Assembly: GCA_028583605.1 (NCBI GenBank)
Contig: CM053332.1
Location: 11,644,442 to 11,708,441 of the forward strand
Source: Dastarcus helophoroides
Taxonomy: Eukaryota; Arthropoda; Insecta; Coleoptera; Bothrideridae
Length of the DNA: 64,000 bases
Direction: 5' to 3'
A program made the translations under genes and the position numbers. The notes below the pieces were generated by a model, which saw only the letters and a list, made by a program, of their open reading frames with translations, was not told the origin of the DNA and searched no databases. This document shows, piece after piece, positions 262-53,030 of this stretch. Positions within the stretch are counted from its first letter, which is position 1; each line of letters starts with the position of its first letter.

Positions 262-310
262 AATGATATACTTCTTCCGGGATTGGACCGTGTCAAAGAC
301 CTACTAAAGT

Positions 311-353
311 GTTCGACGTTTCGCCCACCATCGTAGGGGGCTTCTTCAGGAAG
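311..353 (-). ncRNA. hammerhead ribozyme motif, family A, left arm
   Basis: On the minus strand the order is CTTC, CTGAAGA core, one extra A, stem II GCCC..GGGC, GAA, stem III ACGT, cleavage base C (triplet GUC), then GAAC. Stem I pairs only three bases here (TTC with GAA). The catalytic core residues of the hammerhead (CUGANGA and GAA-A) are all present. The one departure is the unpaired A between the core and stem II. Confidence 0.65.
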
Positions 354-575: not shown

Positions 576-620
576 TGTTCCTGAAGAAGCCCCCTACGAT
601 GGTGGGTGAAACGTCGAACA
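576..620 (+). ncRNA. hammerhead ribozyme motif, family A, right arm
   Basis: Stem I is TGTTC (576-580) paired with GAACA (616-620). The core CTGAAGA is at 581-587 and an A is at 588. Stem II lies within 589-607, GAA is at 608-610, self-complementary stem III ACGT at 611-614, and cleavage base C is at 615 within a GUC triplet. In this copy the last base of stem II is T (607) instead of C, so A588 could pair with it. All invariant core residues are present. This is read directly from the bases; activity is not shown. Confidence 0.7.
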
Positions 621-711
621 CTTTTAGTAGTTCTTTGACACGGTCCAATCCCGGAAGAAGTATATCCTGTACTGATTCTGAGCGTGGAAGCCTTCGTTAT
701 CATACTAAAAT

Positions 712-2462: not shown

Positions 2463-2548
2463 CAAAAAGTCAAGTTTTGGTTCGCCACAGGTGGTGCTGG
2501 ATTTTGTCTCAGTCGGGCGTTAGCTTTAAAGATGATGCCGGTTGCTAG
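2463..2548 (+). CDS. fng: fringe internal exon ([10 protein letters not shown] exon)
   Basis: This exon encodes 28 codons plus two bases: it starts [14 protein letters not shown] and runs on [14 protein letters not shown]. The block [16 protein letters not shown] is a hallmark of Fringe, a GT31 beta-1,3-N-acetylglucosaminyltransferase that extends O-fucose on Notch EGF repeats in the Golgi using UDP-GlcNAc. The acceptor is a pyrimidine-rich tract ending TTTTACAG at 2462. The donor is GTAAGT at 2549. The exon begins in phase 0 and ends with AG, the first two bases of a serine codon completed by the C that opens the exon at 47995. That phase match across 45 kb, together with the shared family order, is why I treat the four exons as one gene. 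Exons for the N-terminus and the metal-binding DxD region must lie upstream; I saw none in 1-2462. Confidence 0.95.
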
Positions 2549-3690: not shown

Positions 3691-4120
3691 CTGCTCTTTT
3701 TTGCAACATTTGTCTTTTATTTTTAAATTTCCAAAATTATTACTAACATCGTTCTTGTCAAAATCTGATCTCTTTAAAATTGTGAATCTTTACCTTAAAA
3801 TTTTTCATTTTTTTTTCAAATATTCCATTCTTGAAAATTAGACCTTTTCTGAAAATTTACACTTTTTTAAAATCCAAATTTGCAAATTTCAACTTGTTTA
3901 TCAAAATTTGCTTTTTTCTCAAAATTTGGTCGATTTTTGATAAAAAAGTAAAAATGTTTTTTTCAATTTATTTAACATTTCTTCGGCCCAGTTTAGAAAT
4001 ATTTAAATTTTTATGGTTTGTTGACAATTTTCTAAACAATTTTTGAAATGCGACTACGTGATCTTTAAATTTATTAAAAACGTCACTTCATGACAGTTTA
4101 CAAATTAAGAGGTTAGTTTA
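3690..4120. repeat. degenerate T-rich repeat block
   Basis: T-rich orientation with words such as CAAAATTT, TTTTTCTCAAAA and AAATTTCAAC, of the same family as the longer blocks at 4560-5900 and 53760-55740. Confidence 0.5.
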
Positions 4121-4243
4121 TTTTACATAGAACAGGAATAATGACAAATAGGAGACCAAAAATTAGATATGGAAAATATAAAAAATTTTTGTTTTTTTGA
4201 TAAATTAGGAAAATATAAAAAAAAATACATAAAAAAGGTTGTA

Positions 4244-4290
4244 GCACTGGACATCGATGTTTCGCCCTCATTTGAGCTCGTCAGCAGTGC
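4244..4290 (-). ncRNA. consensus hammerhead ribozyme (family C)
   Basis: Read on the minus strand. Stem I is GCACTG (4290-4285) paired with CAGTGC (4249-4244), six Watson-Crick pairs. The core CTGACGA is at 4284-4278. Stem II is GCTC / GGGC with a six-base loop (4277-4264; three Watson-Crick pairs and one U-G). GAA is at 4263-4261. Stem III ACATCGATGT (4260-4251) is self-complementary. Cleavage base C at 4250 gives a GUC triplet. Every invariant residue of the hammerhead core is present and no stem has a mismatch. Hammerheads of this kind are known in Penelope-like elements and retrozymes. The surrounding 100 bp are A-rich and encode nothing. A decayed copy is at 31437-31485. Confidence 0.9.
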
Positions 4291-4559
4291 ATAACATGGA
4301 AAGGGAACAATGAGGAAGAAATACTTAAAAATAATTTTTTTTTTAAAAAGAATAAAAAAGTAAAAACTTTGAAAAGAGTTTTTTTTTATTTCTGAATTTT
4401 TGTAAAAAGTCAAAAGGCCTAGCAAATTTTCTTTGGGAATTTCACGGTTTTCGAGATTGTTTTCAATCCAAATTTTTGAAAATTCCAACTTGCTCTTCAA
4501 AATGTTGACATTTAGCTCAATATTGGACATTTTTTGACGTCACGGTGGGGCACTTGTCT

Positions 4560-9176: not shown

Positions 9177-9475
9177 ATATGATTTCTTATCCTTTGTACC
9201 AAATTTCAATTCAGAATAGTTTCGCCTCTGGTATAGTGGACATACTGAGTTACCGTGCTCTGATGTTTTGAAATTGGCCTTTTTCATTTTTGTATATTTC
9301 CTTGTATTTTATTTTTCATTTATTGTTTTTTTTTGTTCCTAAAGAAGCCTCCTACTATGGTGGGCAAAACGTCAAACACTTTCAGTAGTTCTTTGACACG
9401 GTCCAATCCCCCAAGGAGTATATCCTGTACTGACTCTGGCCTTGGAAGCCTTTGTTATCATATTGCTAAGTACAT
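9177..9475 (+). mobile_element. family A ribozyme-bearing repeat, decayed copy
   Basis: Matches 423-711 nearly end to end, including CTCTGGTATAGTGGACATAC and the GTCCAATCCC..GTATATCCTG end. The ribozyme position (about 9340-9385) has CTAAAGA in place of CTGAAGA and GCAAAACGTC in place of GCGAAACGTC, so the catalytic core is mutated. Only one arm is present. Confidence 0.6.
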
Positions 9476-9494: not shown

Positions 9495-10070
9495 CGAAGG
9501 TAGTCTGAGAAGTTTCCGACCTAACAAAGATACAAGAATTTTTCTTGAAATATTTTTCAATTTTCTAATAATCTTGTAAGTCTACACACTTCTCCCAGCG
9601 ATGCTCTCATTTCTTTAAACCGCCCAAATAGTACTCGGCGTTTTTCTCCGCAAAATAATTTTTCACGAAGGTGATTGCCATCTTATTTGATGAAAAGCTC
9701 TGATCTCCCGGCACAATTTTTAAATTAGGGTACAAAAAGAAGGCGCTTGGGGCTAGATCTGATGAGTAAAGAGGATCGTCAAGCAGTTTAAACCGTAATT
9801 CGGGGATTTTCGTCATGGCAACAGCGGAGATGTGAGACGGCGCGTTGTCTTGGTGAAACAGTATTTTCTTTTTCTGCAAAGGTGGCCGCAATTTCTACCT
9901 TCAGTTTGTCAAATAATGATGCGTAGTATACTCCTGTAATGGTTTTTCCCGTTTGAAGGTAATCGACAGGACTAGCCCAAAAAACAGTCACTATCACTTT
10001 TCCAGCCGAAAAAAACAGCCGATTTCCCTTTCGCAGTCCATTGTTTTGACTGTATTTTGGTTTTGGGCGT
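9495..10070 (-). pseudogene. mariner transposase, C-terminal part, broken
   Basis: On the minus strand two overlapping frames give SAGKVIVTVFW and DYLQTGKTITGVYYASLFDK, then after a frameshift at about 9885 KKKILFHQDNAPSH and LYSSDLAPSAFFLYPNLK. This is the C-terminal half of a mariner D,D34D transposase. The Asp of HQDNAP is kept, but the third catalytic Asp (34 residues later, usually LAPSD) is alanine here, and there are stops near the end. The element end at 9495 (CGAAGGTAGTCTGAGAAG) follows a TA dinucleotide, consistent with a mariner terminus. The 5' half is missing, cut off next to the CCCGGGAT-rich element at 10080. Confidence 0.85.
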
Positions 10071-10679
10071 ACAATGTACCTAGGGAATTCGATCCCGGTC
10101 ATTATTTCTAATCCCGGGATTTCAGGTTTATATTTGGTCAAGTCCGGGATCCCGGGATTATTTTGGTATTGAAGGTTACGAACAAAAGAGAGGAAAATTT
10201 TATAGAAGTCAGCTCTTTAATTAAGAAATTAAAGTTTAGATAGCAATCAAAATTTAGACAAATATCAATGCAATTTCCTCTCTTTTCTAACTAATCACAC
10301 TTTATGTAAAATTCTTTTGGGAGATCTCTTTAAAGTTTTATAAATTGAAAAATTCTTTAAGTATGTAACCAACTATGGAAATAAATTGTGAAGATTAACA
10401 AAATTACCTCTTTAACATAAACCGATGACTTTTATGTAACTCCCTAGTCAGTAGTTAACAAAAAGCAAAAAGTATTTATTTAAAAATCATATTAACCAAT
10501 CACATTCATATTAGGTAAATGAAACTAAGTTAATAGGAATCAGTGGCGTATCGTAACTTTTATGAATAGGGAAGCTGACCGGAAACCCTTTTAAACGATT
10601 AATTATAATTTTGCTTTCATTGGCATCCAAAAAATAATATTCCTTTCTGGCGTGTTTAGATTAATCTAAACAGGATTTC

Positions 10680-18789: not shown

Positions 18790-19030
18790 TATAGAAAATT
18801 GAAATACAGAACTTGTCCCCTGAAACCCAGAAAGATTAAAAAACACAACAAAGGTTGCTCTAACGCGTTTCGACAGCCAAGCTGTCATCTTCAGAGAGAA
18901 ACTACAGCTTGGCTCTCGAAACGCGTTAGAGCAACCTTTGTTGTGTTTTTTAATCTTTCTTGGTTTCAGGGGACAAATTCCGTATTTCAATTTTTGAAGA
19001 TAACCAAGGACCAGTCCGTTCCATCAAATA
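18790..19030. mobile_element. family B inverted-repeat element with hammerhead motif
   Basis: Palindromic: the arms at 18800-18895 and 18900-19000 are inverted copies (for example AAACACAACAAAGGTTGCTC and its complement). The outer ends carry CTTGTCCCCTGAAACCC and TGAAGATAACCAAGGACCAG. Because of this symmetry, open frames on the two strands encode nearly the same peptide. The left arm holds an intact ribozyme motif. Confidence 0.7.
18858..18898 (-). ncRNA. hammerhead ribozyme motif, family B
   Basis: On the minus strand: CTCT, core CTGAAGA, extra T, stem II GACAGC-TTG-GCTGTC, GAA, self-complementary stem III ACGCGT, base T (GUU triplet), then AGAG pairing with CTCT. Stem II differs from the GATAGC/GCTATC version in other copies by a paired change (T-A to C-G), which preserves the helix. 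Confidence 0.7.
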
Positions 19031-19079: not shown

Positions 19080-19245
19080 TTTTCTTCGGATATTTATTAA
19101 GCTTGATCAACACTATCTCTCTGAAGATGATAGCTTGGCTACCGAAACGCGTTAGAGCAACCTTTATTGCGTTTTTTTAATCTTTCTTGATTTCAGGGGC
19201 CAAGATTTGTATTTCAATTTTTGAAGATAACCAAGGACCACCAAA
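19080..19245 (+). mobile_element. family B terminal repeat, single arm
   Basis: Starts in unique sequence, then CTCTCTGAAGATGATAGC at 19117 and continues through GTTAGAGCAACCTTT, TCTTGATTTCAGGGG and TGAAGATAACCAAGGACCA. This is one arm only, with no inverted partner. Confidence 0.65.
19117..19157 (+). ncRNA. hammerhead ribozyme motif, family B, slightly decayed
   Basis: CTCT stem I, core CTGAAGA, T, stem II GATAGC-TTG-GCTACC with one mismatch, GAA, ACGCGT, T, AGAG. Core residues are complete. Confidence 0.6.
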
Positions 19246-19743: not shown

Positions 19744-22700
19744 CACAGTGGTTCAAAACGCCCCAAAAGTGATCAAAAATGCAAAAAATAGAGTGTTTTG
19801 GATTAGTTCAAACACACCTGGAATAGTTTGTCAAGTAGTTCCAGTAACCGTTGGTATAAATAGTTAATAATAATTCGGTTTTCTTCAGTTTGTGAATAGC
19901 AGCCAAAGTGGAAACATTTCAAGTGAGAAATTGTTTTACGACTACGCCTAATATAATTGTGTTTTTATTGTGCTTTTTTCTAAAAAATGGATAAACCCAG
20001 TACCTCCAAATTCCAGGATTTTTTGGACCCAAGTAAGTACTGTTTATTGCCATAAACCAATTTCCTGTTGAAGGTTATATACCTTAATAATTATAATAAG
20101 CTTAATACTATTACATGTTTTAAGTAAATATTAGATGAGCGGATGTTAGCAAGATATTAGTTAAATTGTCCGTATTTGTCCGTTGTCATTTTCAGCTTAA
20201 TTGGCAGACCAATGTGTGCTCTTTGATATCCTTCACTCACATTCTGCGCAAAGCTGCGCAATTTTGAGAAAACCTTTGTAAATGAATAAAACATCTAATA
20301 CATAAACAAATTTTCACAAATCTTTATTAATATAAATATTTTAAGCAATAACACTCATTGTTTTAATAAATATGACGTGTACATATAATTTACTTCTTAT
20401 TTTTTTAGGCTCTGAGGAAGTTATAGTGTCCATAAGAGAAATTTTTGAGCTTTGGGCGTCATCAGTTGGTGATTCCACTAAACGAATTCACAGGGTTGTA
20501 AATCAAATATTGGAAATGTTTGGCACTTCTATTGAGCTAGAAAGTGATATGAAGAAAGAAGTTACTGAAAAAATTAGAATTATATGTATTAAATTAGGTG
20601 AAAGGTGGCAAAAATGCCATAGATATAGAGAAAGGTTTTTGGAAAAAAAATCAAATTGGTTAGATGGTGACGTAACTTTTAGTAGTAAAGTTAAGATTAC
20701 GAATCAAACACTGACTAGTTTAGGTGTAGCAGAGCGAGGTCGTCCTAAGAAATCTTTTATAAGTAGCAGTAACAGCTCTAAAAGGAGAAAGATTTTAGAG
20801 CTCCGACAAAAGTATGAAGTACCCCAACTCATACACACGGCTCAAAAACTTTAAAAGATACTGGTATGAAAGATGCAGCCTGGTTATTAAAAGAAGCCAC
20901 TCAGACATCTAATTTAAGGGCAACTACGATTCGTGATACATGGCAAACAGGAGCTACAAAACCGTATAACGAAGATGATGCATTATCTCTAATGGTGGAG
21001 AGTAACTTAAGTAAAAGTCAATACATGGCAATCCGCCTACAGGCAAAAAGTAGAAACATCAATATATACCCTAGTTATCACAAGGTTTTATGCGCTAAAC
21101 AGAAGTGTTATCCATCTTTGGAATCATTTATTATTACAGAGTCACTAATGGAAATAAAATTGCAACCTCTTTTGGACCATACTGCAAGCCGCATTATTTT
21201 GTCTGACAAAAATAGTTTTAAAACATTGACCTCGGAAAACAAAAGAAATGTTGTTATGTTGACCAAGTGGGGATTTAATGGTAGTAGTGGCCACAGTGAG
21301 TACAAGCAAGTCATGTCTGAGGAATTTCAAGATTGCGATATGTTTGTTACATCATTAGTACCCATACAATTGACATGTGCAGCAACTGGAAATATTTTAT
21401 GGAAAAATTTTAGACCAGCATCTACCCGGTATTGCAGGCCAATTAGAATTCAGTTTAAGAAAGAATCTCAAGATTTGTCAAGATCAGAACGTGCACATAT
21501 TGAAGAACAAATTAATAATTTACATGTAACCCAATACAAAGATATTGTAATAAAACATGAAATGGTAATGACCATGGTTGATGGCAAAGTGTGCTGTGCT
21601 GTCACTGAAACATCTTCTGCTCAGAAATGTTATGTATGTGGAGCCAGTCCAAAAGAAATGAATGCTCTAGATATAGTTTTAAAGCGACATGTGAAGACAG
21701 GGTGTTTTGAGTTTGGATTATCCACCCTACACGCGTGGATTAGGTTCTTTGAATACCTACTTCATATCTCGTATAGGTTGGGTATTAAAAAATGGCAAGT
21801 ACGTGGACAAGACAAAGATGAATTTAAAGCAAGAAAACAGGCAATTCAAAAACGTTTTAAATCAGAAATGGGCCTGATAGTTGATAAGGTGACACAGGGA
21901 GGTAGCGGTACCTCAAATGATGGAAGCACTGCTCGGCGGTTTTTTGCCAATTAACGATTGTCAGCCGATATATTAGGCATTGAGGAAGATGTAATTCGAA
22001 GATGTGGTGTTATTTTGAGGACTTTAGCGTCTGAATATAAAATAAATATTCATGTATTTAAAGAGTATGCTTTGAAAACAGCGACCCTGTTAACTGAAAA
22101 GTATCCCTGGTATTATATGCCTGCTAGCGTTCATAAAATATTAATCCATGGTCCATCAATCATTGAGCATGCTATAGTACCAATTGGTCTACTATCCGAA
22201 GAAGCTCAAGAGGCAAGAAACAAAGATTTAAGAAATTACCGCGCACATTTTACAAGAAAGATTTCTAGACTACACACAAATAAAGACTTGATATGTCGGC
22301 TTCTAGTAACCTCTGATCCATATATTACGAGTTTAAGAGTAACACCTAAAAAAAACAGTTGATCTTGATGATGACATGCTTTTACTTCTCGAACAAGACC
22401 AGTTCGTACAATCTTCCGATTCCACAGATTCCTCACAGGAAGAGAGTGACGATGGTGATTATGATGATGACGATGACAGTGCTCACTAATATTGTAAACA
22501 TTACTTAATTCTTGTAAAACTTATATGTTCGTGTGTAATGTGCGAATGACCACTAGATTATCTGCATATGGATGTTGCATATTTATAATATGTATACTTG
22601 TCGAGCTACAATATGCATGACTAGCCCTTAAAAACGTTATGACTTCTTTCTGTTGTAAATTTATTAGAGTAAATATATTAGAAATATGAGATGTAAATAA

Positions 22701-31971: not shown

Positions 31972-32290
31972 CACTCAGAAGAGTTTCACCTCTGGTATGG
32001 TGGACATACTGAGTTACCGTACTCTTCTGTCTAAACTTTGAACCAATTTTCAATTCAGAAGAGTTTCGCCTCTGGTATGGTGGACATACCCAGTTACCGT
32101 GCTCTGTTGTTTTGAAATTGGCATTTTCATTCTTCCATTTTTGCATATTCCCCTATATTTCTCTTTTTATTTATTGTTTCTTTTCTTTGTTTTTGAAGAA
32201 GCCCCCTACGATGGTGGGCGAAACGTCGAACACCTTTAGTAGTTCTTTGACACAGTCCAATCCCGGAAGAAGTATATCCTGTACGTGTCA
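31972..32290 (+). mobile_element. family A ribozyme-bearing repeat, copy 3
   Basis: The segment AGAAGAGTTTCGCCTCTGG is present twice in tandem (about 31978 and 32055, with differences) and is followed by the same tail as at 500-690, ending GTATATCCTGTA. The ribozyme position is 32188-32232. Confidence 0.6.
32188..32232 (+). ncRNA. hammerhead motif, family A, core base mutated
   Basis: TTGAAGA replaces CTGAAGA (invariant C3 lost). Stem II GCCC/GGGC, GAA, ACGT, C and GAAC are intact. Confidence 0.5.
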
Positions 32291-38649: not shown

Positions 38650-38925
38650 AGAGTGAGAATTGAAATACAAAACTTGTCCCCTGAAAGCAAGCAAGATTAA
38701 AAAACACAACAAAGGTTGCTCTAACGTGTTTCGACAGCCAAGCTATCATCTTCAGAGAGATTGTTGAGTTGAGTATCTCTCTGAAGATGATAGCTTGACT
38801 GTCGAAATTGCGTTAAAGCAACCTTTGTTGGGTTAATCTTTCTTGGTTTCAGGGGATAAGTTTTGTATTTCAGTTTTTGAAGATAACCAAGGACCAGTTC
38901 GTTCCAACAACAACAAAAAGTGAGA
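38650..38925. mobile_element. family B inverted-repeat element
   Basis: Two arms in inverted orientation with outer ends AATACAAAACTTGTCCCCTG and its complement, and a short centre GTTGAGTTGAGTA. Both arms carry a ribozyme position (38719-38759 minus; 38777-38817 plus, decayed). Confidence 0.7.
38719..38759 (-). ncRNA. hammerhead motif, family B
   Basis: Core CTGAAGA and GAA intact. Stem II GATAGC/GCTGTC keeps six pairs through a U-G wobble. Stem III is ACACGT, so its self-complementarity is weakened. Confidence 0.6.
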
Positions 38926-47994: not shown

Positions 47995-48065
47995 CGGTGG
48001 CAAGTTCATTAGTACGGGTGAGAAGATCCGTCTGCCAGATGATGTCACAATGGGCTACATAATCG
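47995..48065 (+). CDS. fng: fringe internal exon (PDDVTMGY exon)
   Basis: The exon encodes GGKFISTGEKIRLPDDVTMG followed by YII, with a split serine codon at the start and one base (G) of a glutamate codon at the end. The acidic PDDVTMG motif is conserved in Fringe proteins and falls in the region of the proposed catalytic base in the vertebrate Manic fringe structure. The acceptor is TTTTATTTTCAG at 47994 and the donor is GTGAGT at 48066. It is separated from the next exon by only 451 bp, in contrast to the 45.4-kb intron before it. No in-frame stop or frameshift is present, and codon use is ordinary with far higher GC than the surrounding intron. Together with its neighbours this is a functional-looking host gene segment. 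Confidence 0.95.
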
Positions 48066-48516: not shown

Positions 48517-48611
48517 AGCACTTGCTCAAGAAACCTCTGACCGTGGTCAACCAATTTCATTCGCATCTAGAACCGATGAAGTTCATTAGAAGGGACATGC
48601 TCCAGGATCAG
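48517..48611 (+). CDS. fng: fringe internal exon (HSHLEPM exon)
   Basis: The exon completes a glutamate codon and then encodes HLLKKPLTVVNQFHSHLEPM and KFIRRDMLQDQ. The histidine-rich stretch FHSHLEPM is strongly conserved in insect and vertebrate Fringe proteins and lies in the C-terminal half of the catalytic domain. The acceptor TGTCTTGTTTCAG ends at 48516 and the donor GTAATT starts at 48612. The exon is 95 bp (two bases plus 31 codons) and ends in phase 0, which fits the phase-0 start of the exon at 58620. No disabling mutation is seen. Confidence 0.95.
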
Positions 48612-52552: not shown

Positions 52553-53030
52553 ACTGATATACAAATTGTCGCCTGAAGAAAGATTAAAAAACACAACAGA
52601 GGTTCCTCTAACCCGTTTCGATAGCCAAGCTATAATCTTTAGATAGACACTAACACCTAATCCTAAAATTAACCCTTATATACTAATATTCACTTCGTGC
52701 ATAATCGACCGCGTCCGAACGCACATGCGCATCTAATCATGCACTTTGTAGTATCACAATTCCTTATCTATCAAACTTAATCATTTTTACCAGAGATGAG
52801 TGGCCTAAAGGCCCAGCGCAACCTTTCATAATGTTTTCACGAAGTGAATGTTCTTAATAAATAAGGGTTAATCCTAGGATTAGGTGTTAGCATCTCTCTG
52901 AAGATGATAGCTTGGCTATCGAAACGCGTTAGAGCAACCTCTGTTGTATTTTTTAATCTTTCTTGGTTTTCAGGGGACAAGATTTGTATTTCAATTTTCG
53001 AAGATAATCAAGGACTAGTCCGTTCCACCA
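52553..53030. mobile_element. family B element, longest copy, with hammerhead
   Basis: Inverted arms with a second inner inverted pair (CACCTAATCCTAAAATTAAC versus GTTAATCCTAGGATTAGGTG). The centre, 52690-52850, contains TTCCTTATCTATCAAAC and GGCCTAAAGGCCCAGCGCAAC, which also occur next to the Penelope GIY-YIG fragment at 40938-41000. That shared centre ties the inverted repeats to the Penelope element. Confidence 0.75.
52894..52934 (+). ncRNA. hammerhead ribozyme motif, family B, best copy
   Basis: Stem I CTCT (52894-52897) with AGAG (52931-52934). Core CTGAAGA 52898-52904, extra T 52905, stem II GATAGC (52906-52911) with GCTATC (52915-52920) and loop TTG. GAA 52921-52923, self-complementary ACGCGT 52924-52929, T 52930. 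All core residues are present. The stem III sequence can pair with a second copy of itself, as in dimeric hammerheads known from Penelope-like elements. Confidence 0.72.

What the first reader, a model, noticed from the sequence alone, without database searches (positions are those of the whole stretch)
4244..4290. Full-consensus hammerhead ribozyme inside a fringe intron
Every invariant core base is present (CUGACGA; GAA-A; GUC cleavage triplet). Stem I (6 bp), stem II (4 bp with one U-G) and stem III (self-complementary ACAUCGAUGU) are unbroken. The chance of all these coinciding is very small. Because the copy is antisense to fng, it would only cleave transcripts from its own strand.
Basis: partly seen in the sequence, partly recalled or inferred. 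Interest (0 to 1): 0.9.

Follow-up and report, generated by a model that had tools for sequence, protein, structure and literature searches.

The report
Hammerhead ribozyme in a jumping element
The self-cutting RNA motif in the fringe intron looks real, but the same motif occurs more than a thousand times in this genome, and where examined it sits in a short mobile element whose insertions look like the work of Penelope-type reverse transcriptases.

Summary
The motif is exactly at 4244-4290 (-) and has the structure of a canonical type I hammerhead. Rfam HH9 scores 35.6 bits, below its gathering score of 52. A model built from 45 viral-contig hammerheads gives 37.9 bits, E 2.4e-8. It lies 1.7 kb into a 45.4-kb fringe intron, antisense.

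It is not a private intronic ribozyme. The 539-Mb genome holds 1,050 matches to its core (35 bases, two free), none in the backwards control. The window copy is a 397-bp insert (3955-4351) with a 15-bp target-site duplication.

In 60 loci examined, the family has a 709-nt non-coding unit, sometimes head to tail, often with a 5'-truncated head-to-head partner. It has two 3' ends about 31-34 nt apart; 34 of 36 distinct double-ended inserts carry one of each. A ~31-bp tail on one inverted end is a published Penelope (PLE) hallmark. GIY-YIG domains are abundant here, but no PLE sharing the element's tail was found.

Best reading: a new retrozyme-like, non-autonomous family with a canonical hammerhead, moved in trans by PLE enzymes. 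Ribozyme activity, circular RNA and the partner are untested.

The parts
4244..4290 (-). Type I hammerhead ribozyme, 47 nt: stem I 5' strand 4290-4285, CUGACGA 4284-4278, stem II 4277-4274 with 4267-4264 (loop AAAUGA), GAA 4263-4261, palindrome ACAUCGAUGU 4260-4251, C17 4250, stem I 3' strand 4249-4244; predicted cut between 4250 and 4249
   Evidence: self-cleavage not tested
4291..4294 (-). Stem I internal loop, 5' side (UUAU; UUAC in the HH9 model)
   Evidence: alignment to RF02275; role in loop-loop contact inferred
4241..4243 (-). Stem I internal loop, 3' side (UAC, as in the HH9 model)
   Evidence: alignment to RF02275
3955..4351 (-). Whole inserted copy of the repeat (397 bp): a single 5'-truncated copy with the tailless 3' end at 3955; corresponds to about unit positions 312-704 of the 709-nt unit
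3940..3954 (+). Target-site duplication, copy 1 (ATAAAAAAGTAAAAA)
   Evidence: (family D13)
4352..4366 (+). Target-site duplication, copy 2 (ATAAAAAAGTAAAAA)
   Evidence: (family D13)
2463..2548 (+). fringe exon upstream of the intron, followed by GTAAGT
   Evidence: splice sites read by eye
47995..48065 (+). next fringe exon (GGKFISTGEKIRLPDDVTMGYII)
   Evidence: splice sites read by eye
48517..48611 (+). following fringe exon (EHLLKKPLTVVNQFHSHLEPMKF...)
   Evidence: splice sites read by eye

Best explanation
The motif is the ribozyme of a young, high-copy, non-autonomous retroelement. Its 709-nt non-coding unit behaves like a metazoan retrozyme, with a canonical type I hammerhead and head-to-tail units. 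Its insertions carry the signature of Penelope-like element (PLE) reverse transcription. Proposed cycle: tandem copies are transcribed; the hammerhead can cut the RNA into 709-nt monomers, which may be sealed into circles; a PLE protein (RT plus GIY-YIG endonuclease) cuts AT-rich DNA on both strands; it starts cDNA synthesis inside the RNA at either of two sites about 31-34 nt apart, some 300 nt downstream of the ribozyme cut; the two 5'-truncated cDNAs are joined head to head between target-site duplications of about 10-16 bp. The fringe-intron copy is a simple one-ended, 5'-truncated product with an intact ribozyme. It has no expected effect on fringe RNA because it lies on the other strand. 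Shown: structure, copy number of the core, and, in the loci examined, target-site duplications, two alternative 3' ends, tandem and inverted arrangement; GIY-YIG domains in the genome. Inferred: self-cleavage, circularisation, and PLE as the mobilising enzyme.
For: Copy number: 42 matches listed including the window itself, 96-99% for the rest except one at 90% (40 of 1,885 candidates scored), and 500+550 matches to a 35-base core pattern with two free positions, against 0 for the backwards pattern. Candidate target-site duplications of 12 bp or more in 17 of 30 loci, against a maximum of 11 bp in 90 control placements (two of the 17, L138 and L139, are simple sequence lying some 18-43 bases from a mapped end). 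Unit of 709 nt, longest open frame 80 aa, with head-to-tail junctions in L122, L124, L144, L156, L164 and L169/L170. Ends: in 60 loci the insert at the centre was N/T 36, N with one 5' end 17, T with one 5' end 2, T/T 1, N/N 1, other 3. L169/L170 and L178/L179 are the same inserts, so 34 of 36 distinct double-ended inserts are mixed (p about 1e-8 if ends were independent and equally likely). PLE papers seen here: a 30-40-bp optional tail lies between two internal RT start sites, and both DNA strands are cut and extended (PMC11167929); [quoted passage not shown] GIY-YIG: 91 matches over cut-off. One 350-aa ORF carries GIY-YIG, and many of its 109 listed relatives carry RVT_1, PF26215 and GIY-YIG. 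Metazoan retrozymes were proposed to depend on PLEs (PMC7229834, PMC7761336).
Against: No autonomous PLE sharing the element's 3' region was found: in 30 GIY-YIG loci (30 of 91 matches, about 3 kb each) the tail or unit matched at E<=1e-3 only in L204, where the pieces look like separate nearby inserts. The genome search for the body and tail did not complete. The RT part of the examined PLE ORF had no Pfam or PDB match of its own; PLE identity rests on relatives. The Anolis study saw no difference in RT start between the two DNA strands, which does not predict the one-of-each rule. The unit (709 nt) is longer than the 150-450 bp given for animal retrozymes. No 5' end listed falls at the ribozyme cut (unit 414; nearest 407 and 429-430; only the partner pieces are informative, since main copies were chosen for holding the ribozyme), so cut linear RNA does not look like the usual template. 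The apparent low divergence of the ribozyme (0.66% against 2-6% in the flanks, 29 copies) is biased by how loci were chosen; a less biased set is too small to decide. The circular unit is not predicted to hold the ribozyme in its active fold.
Confidence: 0.72

Rival explanations
1. A metazoan non-LTR retrozyme moved by a LINE-type enzyme; the tail and inverted ends are coincidental features of ordinary target-primed reverse transcription.
For: Target-site duplications of about 10-16 bp and 5' truncation also fit LINE-type insertion (recalled).
Against: Two discrete 3' ends about 31-34 nt apart, with one of each in 34 of 36 distinct double-ended inserts, and head-to-head partners both starting from the 3' region, are described for PLEs. 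I know of no such rule for LINEs (recalled, not searched).
Confidence: 0.12
2. A PLE-derived relic: the unit is a pseudo-LTR plus tail of a PLE family that has since lost its coding copies, rather than an independent retrozyme. This overlaps with the best explanation: same enzyme type, different origin.
For: Anatomy resembles that of PLE pLTRs with tails; minimal hammerhead-like motifs lie beside GIY-YIG domains in the same genome.
Against: The hammerhead has a helix III and a canonical stem I internal loop, whereas PLE hammerheads are described as minimal, usually lacking helix III and loop contacts. No coding copy was found in the loci examined.
Confidence: 0.3
3. A domesticated antisense regulatory ribozyme of fringe, like the intronic hammerheads of amniotes (RECK, C10orf118).
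For: Intact core inside an intron; best Rfam match is HH9, a mammalian intronic hammerhead (what HH9 is, is recalled).
Against: Antisense to fringe, core present 1,050 times, and a target-site-duplicated insert 3.5% from the sampled consensus, like the other 28 copies compared (1.4-4.2%).
Confidence: 0.02
4. A foldback or terminal-inverted-repeat DNA transposon that happens to carry a hammerhead.
For: Many copies have inverted arms, up to a near-perfect 1-kb palindrome in L147.
Against: Arm lengths differ from copy to copy, 17 of 60 inserts have one N end and no partner, target-site duplications vary in length, and the two outer ends differ by the tail.
Confidence: 0.03
5. A chance match in AT-rich intron sequence.
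For: The descriptor alone would give about two such hits in 539 Mb (extrapolated from one hit).
Against: CM E 2.4e-8 for the window and 1,050 core matches.
Confidence: 0.005

Closest known systems
Metazoan non-LTR retrozymes with type I hammerheads (Cervera and de la Pena 2020, PMC7229834)
   Same: Canonical type I hammerhead, non-coding unit, head-to-tail copies, GC below 50% (30% here), TSDs longer than 4 bp, PLE-type genes in the same genome.
   Different: Unit of 709 nt against 150-450 bp; mostly one-ended or head-to-head copies rather than long tandem arrays in the 60 loci seen; two defined 3' ends; circular RNA untested.
Penelope-like elements, pLTR and tail (PMC11167929, PMC3846280)
   Same: 31-34-nt tail at one of two inverted 3' ends, head-to-head partners, 5' truncation, partial tandems, short TSDs, RT-start region downstream of the ribozyme cut.
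   Different: No coding region; hammerhead is canonical with a helix III; cut-to-start distance is about 300 nt, against roughly 85-92 nt that I work out from the positions given for the Anolis PLE.
Rfam RF02275 Hammerhead_HH9
   Same: 6-bp stem I, internal loop UUA-/UAC, 4-bp stem II, short stem III; 35.6 bits.
   Different: A conserved mammalian hammerhead lies in an intron of C10orf118 (that HH9 is this one is recalled); here it is a mobile repeat, antisense to the host gene.
Hammerheads of the Aedes type with a palindromic loop III (PMC3088659) and newt satellite type
   Same: Palindromic stem/loop III that could pair between two copies.
   Different: Here 3 bp plus a tetraloop are possible in one molecule, so a monomer may be active (inferred).
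pDo500 satellite hammerhead of Dolichopoda cave crickets (PMC2837043)
   Same: Insect, repeat-borne hammerhead.
   Different: About 500-bp satellite repeats; here dispersed inserts with TSDs.

Membership tests
Type I hammerhead ribozyme | Invariant core C3 U4 G5 A6 N7 G8 A9, G12 A13 A14, A15.1-U16.1, H17 | tested here: met
Type I hammerhead ribozyme | Three helices with stem I open-ended | tested here: met
   stem III only 3 bp in a monomer; the minimum-energy fold is a different one
Type I hammerhead ribozyme | Covariation across homologues | tested here: inconclusive
   7 pairs with a two-sided change among 13 distinct rows, but all of these come from one divergent second ribozyme (L145 2974-3023) that the same model picked; the other copies are too alike
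Type I hammerhead ribozyme | Rfam curated score | tested here: not met
   35.6 of 52 bits for HH9, and no other hammerhead family over its cut-off; the cut-off is for the HH9 family, not for hammerheads as such
Type I hammerhead ribozyme | Self-cleavage | not testable with these tools
   needs in vitro transcription
Metazoan non-LTR retrozyme | Non-coding unit in head-to-tail copies | tested here: met
   junctions in L122, L124, L144, L156, L164, L169/L170 (six of 58 distinct inserts)
Metazoan non-LTR retrozyme | Unit of about 150-450 bp, low GC | tested here: not met
   709 nt; the GC part, 30%, is met
Metazoan non-LTR retrozyme | Linear and circular RNA of unit length | not testable with these tools
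   no RNA data
Penelope-like element | RT plus GIY-YIG open reading frame | tested here: not met
   longest open frame in the unit 80 aa; so not an autonomous PLE
Penelope-like element | Optional 30-40-bp tail at one of the inverted 3' ends | tested here: met
   34 of 36 distinct double-ended inserts mixed, 1 T/T, 1 N/N
Penelope-like element | Minimal hammerhead without helix III or loop contacts | tested here: not met
   canonical form
Amniote-type intronic hammerhead | Lies in an intron and is retained there across species | tested here: inconclusive
   in an intron, but antisense and core present 1,050 times; related species not examined

The most novel reading that the evidence does not exclude
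This family would be the missing physical link between animal retrozymes and PLEs: a canonical-hammerhead retrozyme whose inserts carry the PLE tail signature, implying that a PLE reverse transcriptase moves it in trans. It would also show that the two PLE start sites are used one per DNA strand as a near-fixed rule (34 of 36 distinct inserts), which the part of the in vitro PLE study that I read did not report.
Probability: 0.55. Interest if true: 0.72.

Novelty: new variant of a known kind. Interest (0 to 1): 0.55.

Why it matters
The literature seen here calls PLEs 'a strong candidate' for moving animal retrozymes but offers co-existence, tandem copies and shared hammerheads as evidence. 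A young family with over a thousand matching ribozyme cores and, in the loci examined, PLE-type insertion ends turns this into a testable claim. The one-tail-one-no-tail rule gives a constraint for models of how PLEs join two cDNAs. For fringe itself it means that nothing special is to be expected.

Tried and rejected
Chance match: rejected by copy number. Domesticated fringe ribozyme: rejected by antisense orientation, TSD and copy number. Foldback DNA transposon: rejected by variable arms and unequal ends. A second decayed ribozyme between 3000 and 6000: none above 10.9 bits, which first made the motif look solitary. Thermodynamic folding as a test: uninformative, since the HH9 consensus misfolds too. 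Stable circular fold of the unit: not exceptional (z about -1.2 against 40 mononucleotide shuffles; the ribozyme is not in its active fold in that prediction). Purifying selection on the ribozyme: 0.66% against 2-6% in the flanks is biased by selection of loci (29 of 30 loci used, L122 left out); among ten pieces that did not draw their own locus the figure is 5 of 480 against 10 of 350 and 41 of 891, but four of those ten were drawn by the exact pattern at the neighbouring locus, so this is undecided. Pattern search of viral contigs for this ribozyme: 0. PDB search with the PLE ORF: 0. No autonomous partner found in 30 GIY-YIG loci.

Rows and limits: T/N classes rest on a BLAST-piece script (T = unit end 25-40, N = unit end 685 or more, pieces merged over gaps up to 80 bases), 60 loci, two inserts counted twice in the raw table. 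Of these, 30 were the best matches to the ribozyme region and 30 the first exact core matches on one contig, so they are not a random sample; only about the first 100 of the 1,050 places were listed. TSDs were sought within 45 bases of ends set by hand.

Full report
Observation. The minus strand of 4244-4290 reads exactly as the finding says. It has the core of a type I hammerhead with a 6-bp stem I, a 4-bp stem II with one U-G and a palindromic stem III. The palindrome cannot fold into five pairs on itself; a 3-bp stem with a UCGA loop is realistic, and two copies could form 10 bp. A curated-threshold Rfam search of the window found nothing. With an E-value threshold, Hammerhead_HH9 matches at 35.6 bits, E 1.1e-7 for a 251-base stretch and 2.9e-5 for the whole window. 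A model that I built from 45 hammerheads of viral contigs hits the same place at 37.9 bits, E 2.4e-8, and nothing else in the window at E<=10. A strict descriptor matched once in 4,433 dinucleotide shuffles, rare for a window but, extrapolated, about two per genome of this size, so the descriptor alone would not have settled it. The free-energy fold is not the hammerhead fold, which is also true of the HH9 consensus.

Setting. The exon at 2463-2548 (+) matches manic fringe (2j0a, E 3.7e-9). The next two exons start at 47995 and 48517 (splice sites by eye). The ribozyme is therefore antisense, 1.7 kb into an intron of about 45.4 kb. In the listed relatives of a transposase ORF of the window (120 of 418 listed) and of a PLE-like protein of the same genome (109 listed), the organisms named are insects, so the host is probably an insect; the species is not known.

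The motif is a repeat. The window's own genome (538.9 Mb, 50 contigs) gave 42 listed matches to the 131 bases around the ribozyme, the window itself included, at 96-99% identity apart from one at 90%; 40 of 1,885 candidates were scored. A 35-base core pattern with two free positions occurs 500 times forward and 550 times reverse, and its backwards control 0 times.

Anatomy. Aligning 30 loci showed that the window copy is 3955-4351, flanked by a 15-bp direct repeat. It aligns to unit positions 300-704 of a 709-nt unit taken from L144, the first dozen or so of which coincide with the duplicated target. The unit has no open frame over 80 aa. It occurs head to tail in L122, L124, L144, L156, L164 and L169/L170. 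Often a second, shorter copy lies upstream in the opposite orientation, so that both 3' ends point outwards; L147 is a near-perfect 1-kb palindrome. L204 holds an extreme case, a 107-bp insert made of the two 3' ends alone, with a target duplication of about 10 bp read by eye. Candidate TSDs of 12 bp or more were found in 17 of 30 loci, none over 11 bp in 90 control placements; L138 and L139 among the 17 are doubtful, being simple sequence away from a mapped end.

Two 3' ends. Copies end either at unit 685-709, mostly 700-709 (N), or 31-34 nt further on, at the end of a tail (T). For 60 loci (30 best matches, 30 first core matches on contig 1) the central insert was N/T 36 times, N plus a 5' end 17, T plus a 5' end 2, T/T 1, N/N 1 and unclear 3. 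Two inserts were seen twice, so 34 of 36 distinct double-ended inserts are mixed; with independent, equally likely ends the probability is about 1e-8.

What works like this. A study of an Anolis PLE found that reverse transcription starts at two adjacent sites inside the RNA, that the stretch between them is the optional 30-40-bp tail, and that both DNA strands are cut and extended; it saw no difference in start site between the strands (PMC11167929, first two of four parts read). [quoted passage not shown] The element has both features, together with 5' truncation and short TSDs. It has no coding region, and its hammerhead is canonical where PLE hammerheads are described as minimal (PMC6155905, PMC7761336, passages). 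It therefore works like a PLE template but is not an autonomous PLE. It shares with animal retrozymes (PMC7229834, parts 1-4 of 6) the canonical type I ribozyme, low GC and tandem non-coding units, but not the size. Passages only were seen of PMC3088659 and PMC2837043.

Partner. GIY-YIG domains give 91 matches over cut-off (1,070 candidates, 150 scored). A 350-aa ORF in L212 carries GIY-YIG; it had no PDB match, and many of its 109 relatives carry RVT_1, PF26215 and GIY-YIG, so I take it to be a PLE. Ten of the 30 GIY-YIG loci contain minimal hammerhead-like motifs of the CTGAAGATGATAGC kind. None of the 30 shares the tail or unit at E<=1e-3 except L204, where the pieces look like inserts of their own. 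The partner is thus not identified. The genome search with the body and tail was sent eleven times without an answer.

Template. Copies that hold the whole ribozyme were copied through its cut site (unit 413/414), and none of the 5' ends listed falls there, though only the partner pieces bear on this. Templates were thus uncut multimers or re-sealed circles. The Anolis study found that ribozyme cleavage was not needed for insertion in vitro.

Novelty. In four searches of the held library, the titles and abstract beginnings listed (25 of 42 papers, 7 of 7, 9 of 9 and 15 of 45) describe no PLE-type tails on retrozymes. I read only the papers named, in the parts named, and most subscription papers are not held, so this is weak evidence of novelty. 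PMC7229834 and PMC7761336 propose PLEs as the mobilising agent on the basis of co-existence and shared features. The present family adds insertion ends, so I call it a new variant of a known kind.

Verdict. The ribozyme is real by sequence and structure; its place in fringe is incidental. The interest lies in the mobile family and its ends.

Noticed in passing
window 18841-18894 (-), 19121-19174 (+), 38702-38755 (-), 38781-38834 (+), 52898-52951 (+): Five copies of a minimal hammerhead-like motif (CTGAAGATGAYAGC...GAAACRCGTT; the copy at 38781 reads GAAATTGCGTT), partly in head-to-head inverted pairs; a like motif occurs beside GIY-YIG domains in ten of 30 loci, so these look like PLE pseudo-LTRs.
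   Followed up: partly
window 295-349 (-), 581-636 (+), about 9340-9380 (+), about 32190-32235 (+): A second minimal hammerhead-like family (CTGAAGAAGCCCCC...GAAACGTC with stem I TGTTC/GAACA in the copy at 581; the copies at 9340 and 32190 have altered cores), also with an inverted pair at 306-368/562-624; also near a GIY-YIG domain in L192.
   Followed up: partly
L145:2974-3023 (-): A second canonical hammerhead of unrelated sequence (stem I ACCAAA/TTTGGT, stem II GATC/GATC, palindrome ACCGGT): R1 31.8 bits, HH9 31.8 bits. Copy number unknown because the search did not complete.
   Followed up: partly
window 20345-22362 (+): Transposase in three open frames; the 378-aa part matches the solved DNA transposase 6pqn, E 2.2e-81. 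That this is Transib is recalled.
   Followed up: partly
window 9788-10213 (-): Transposase fragment (Pfam Transposase_1, E 1.8e-6).
   Followed up: no
L125, L162, L173, L174, L176: 5' ends of the short inverted partners recur at unit 664-665 in five loci, which may mark a pause site of the reverse transcriptase.
   Followed up: no
L187:1163-1210 (+): Near a GIY-YIG domain, a hammerhead-like motif with a 6-bp stem I and perfect stem II (CTGATGAGGCCAAGGAAGGCCGAA) but no A15.1-U16.1 pair.
   Followed up: no
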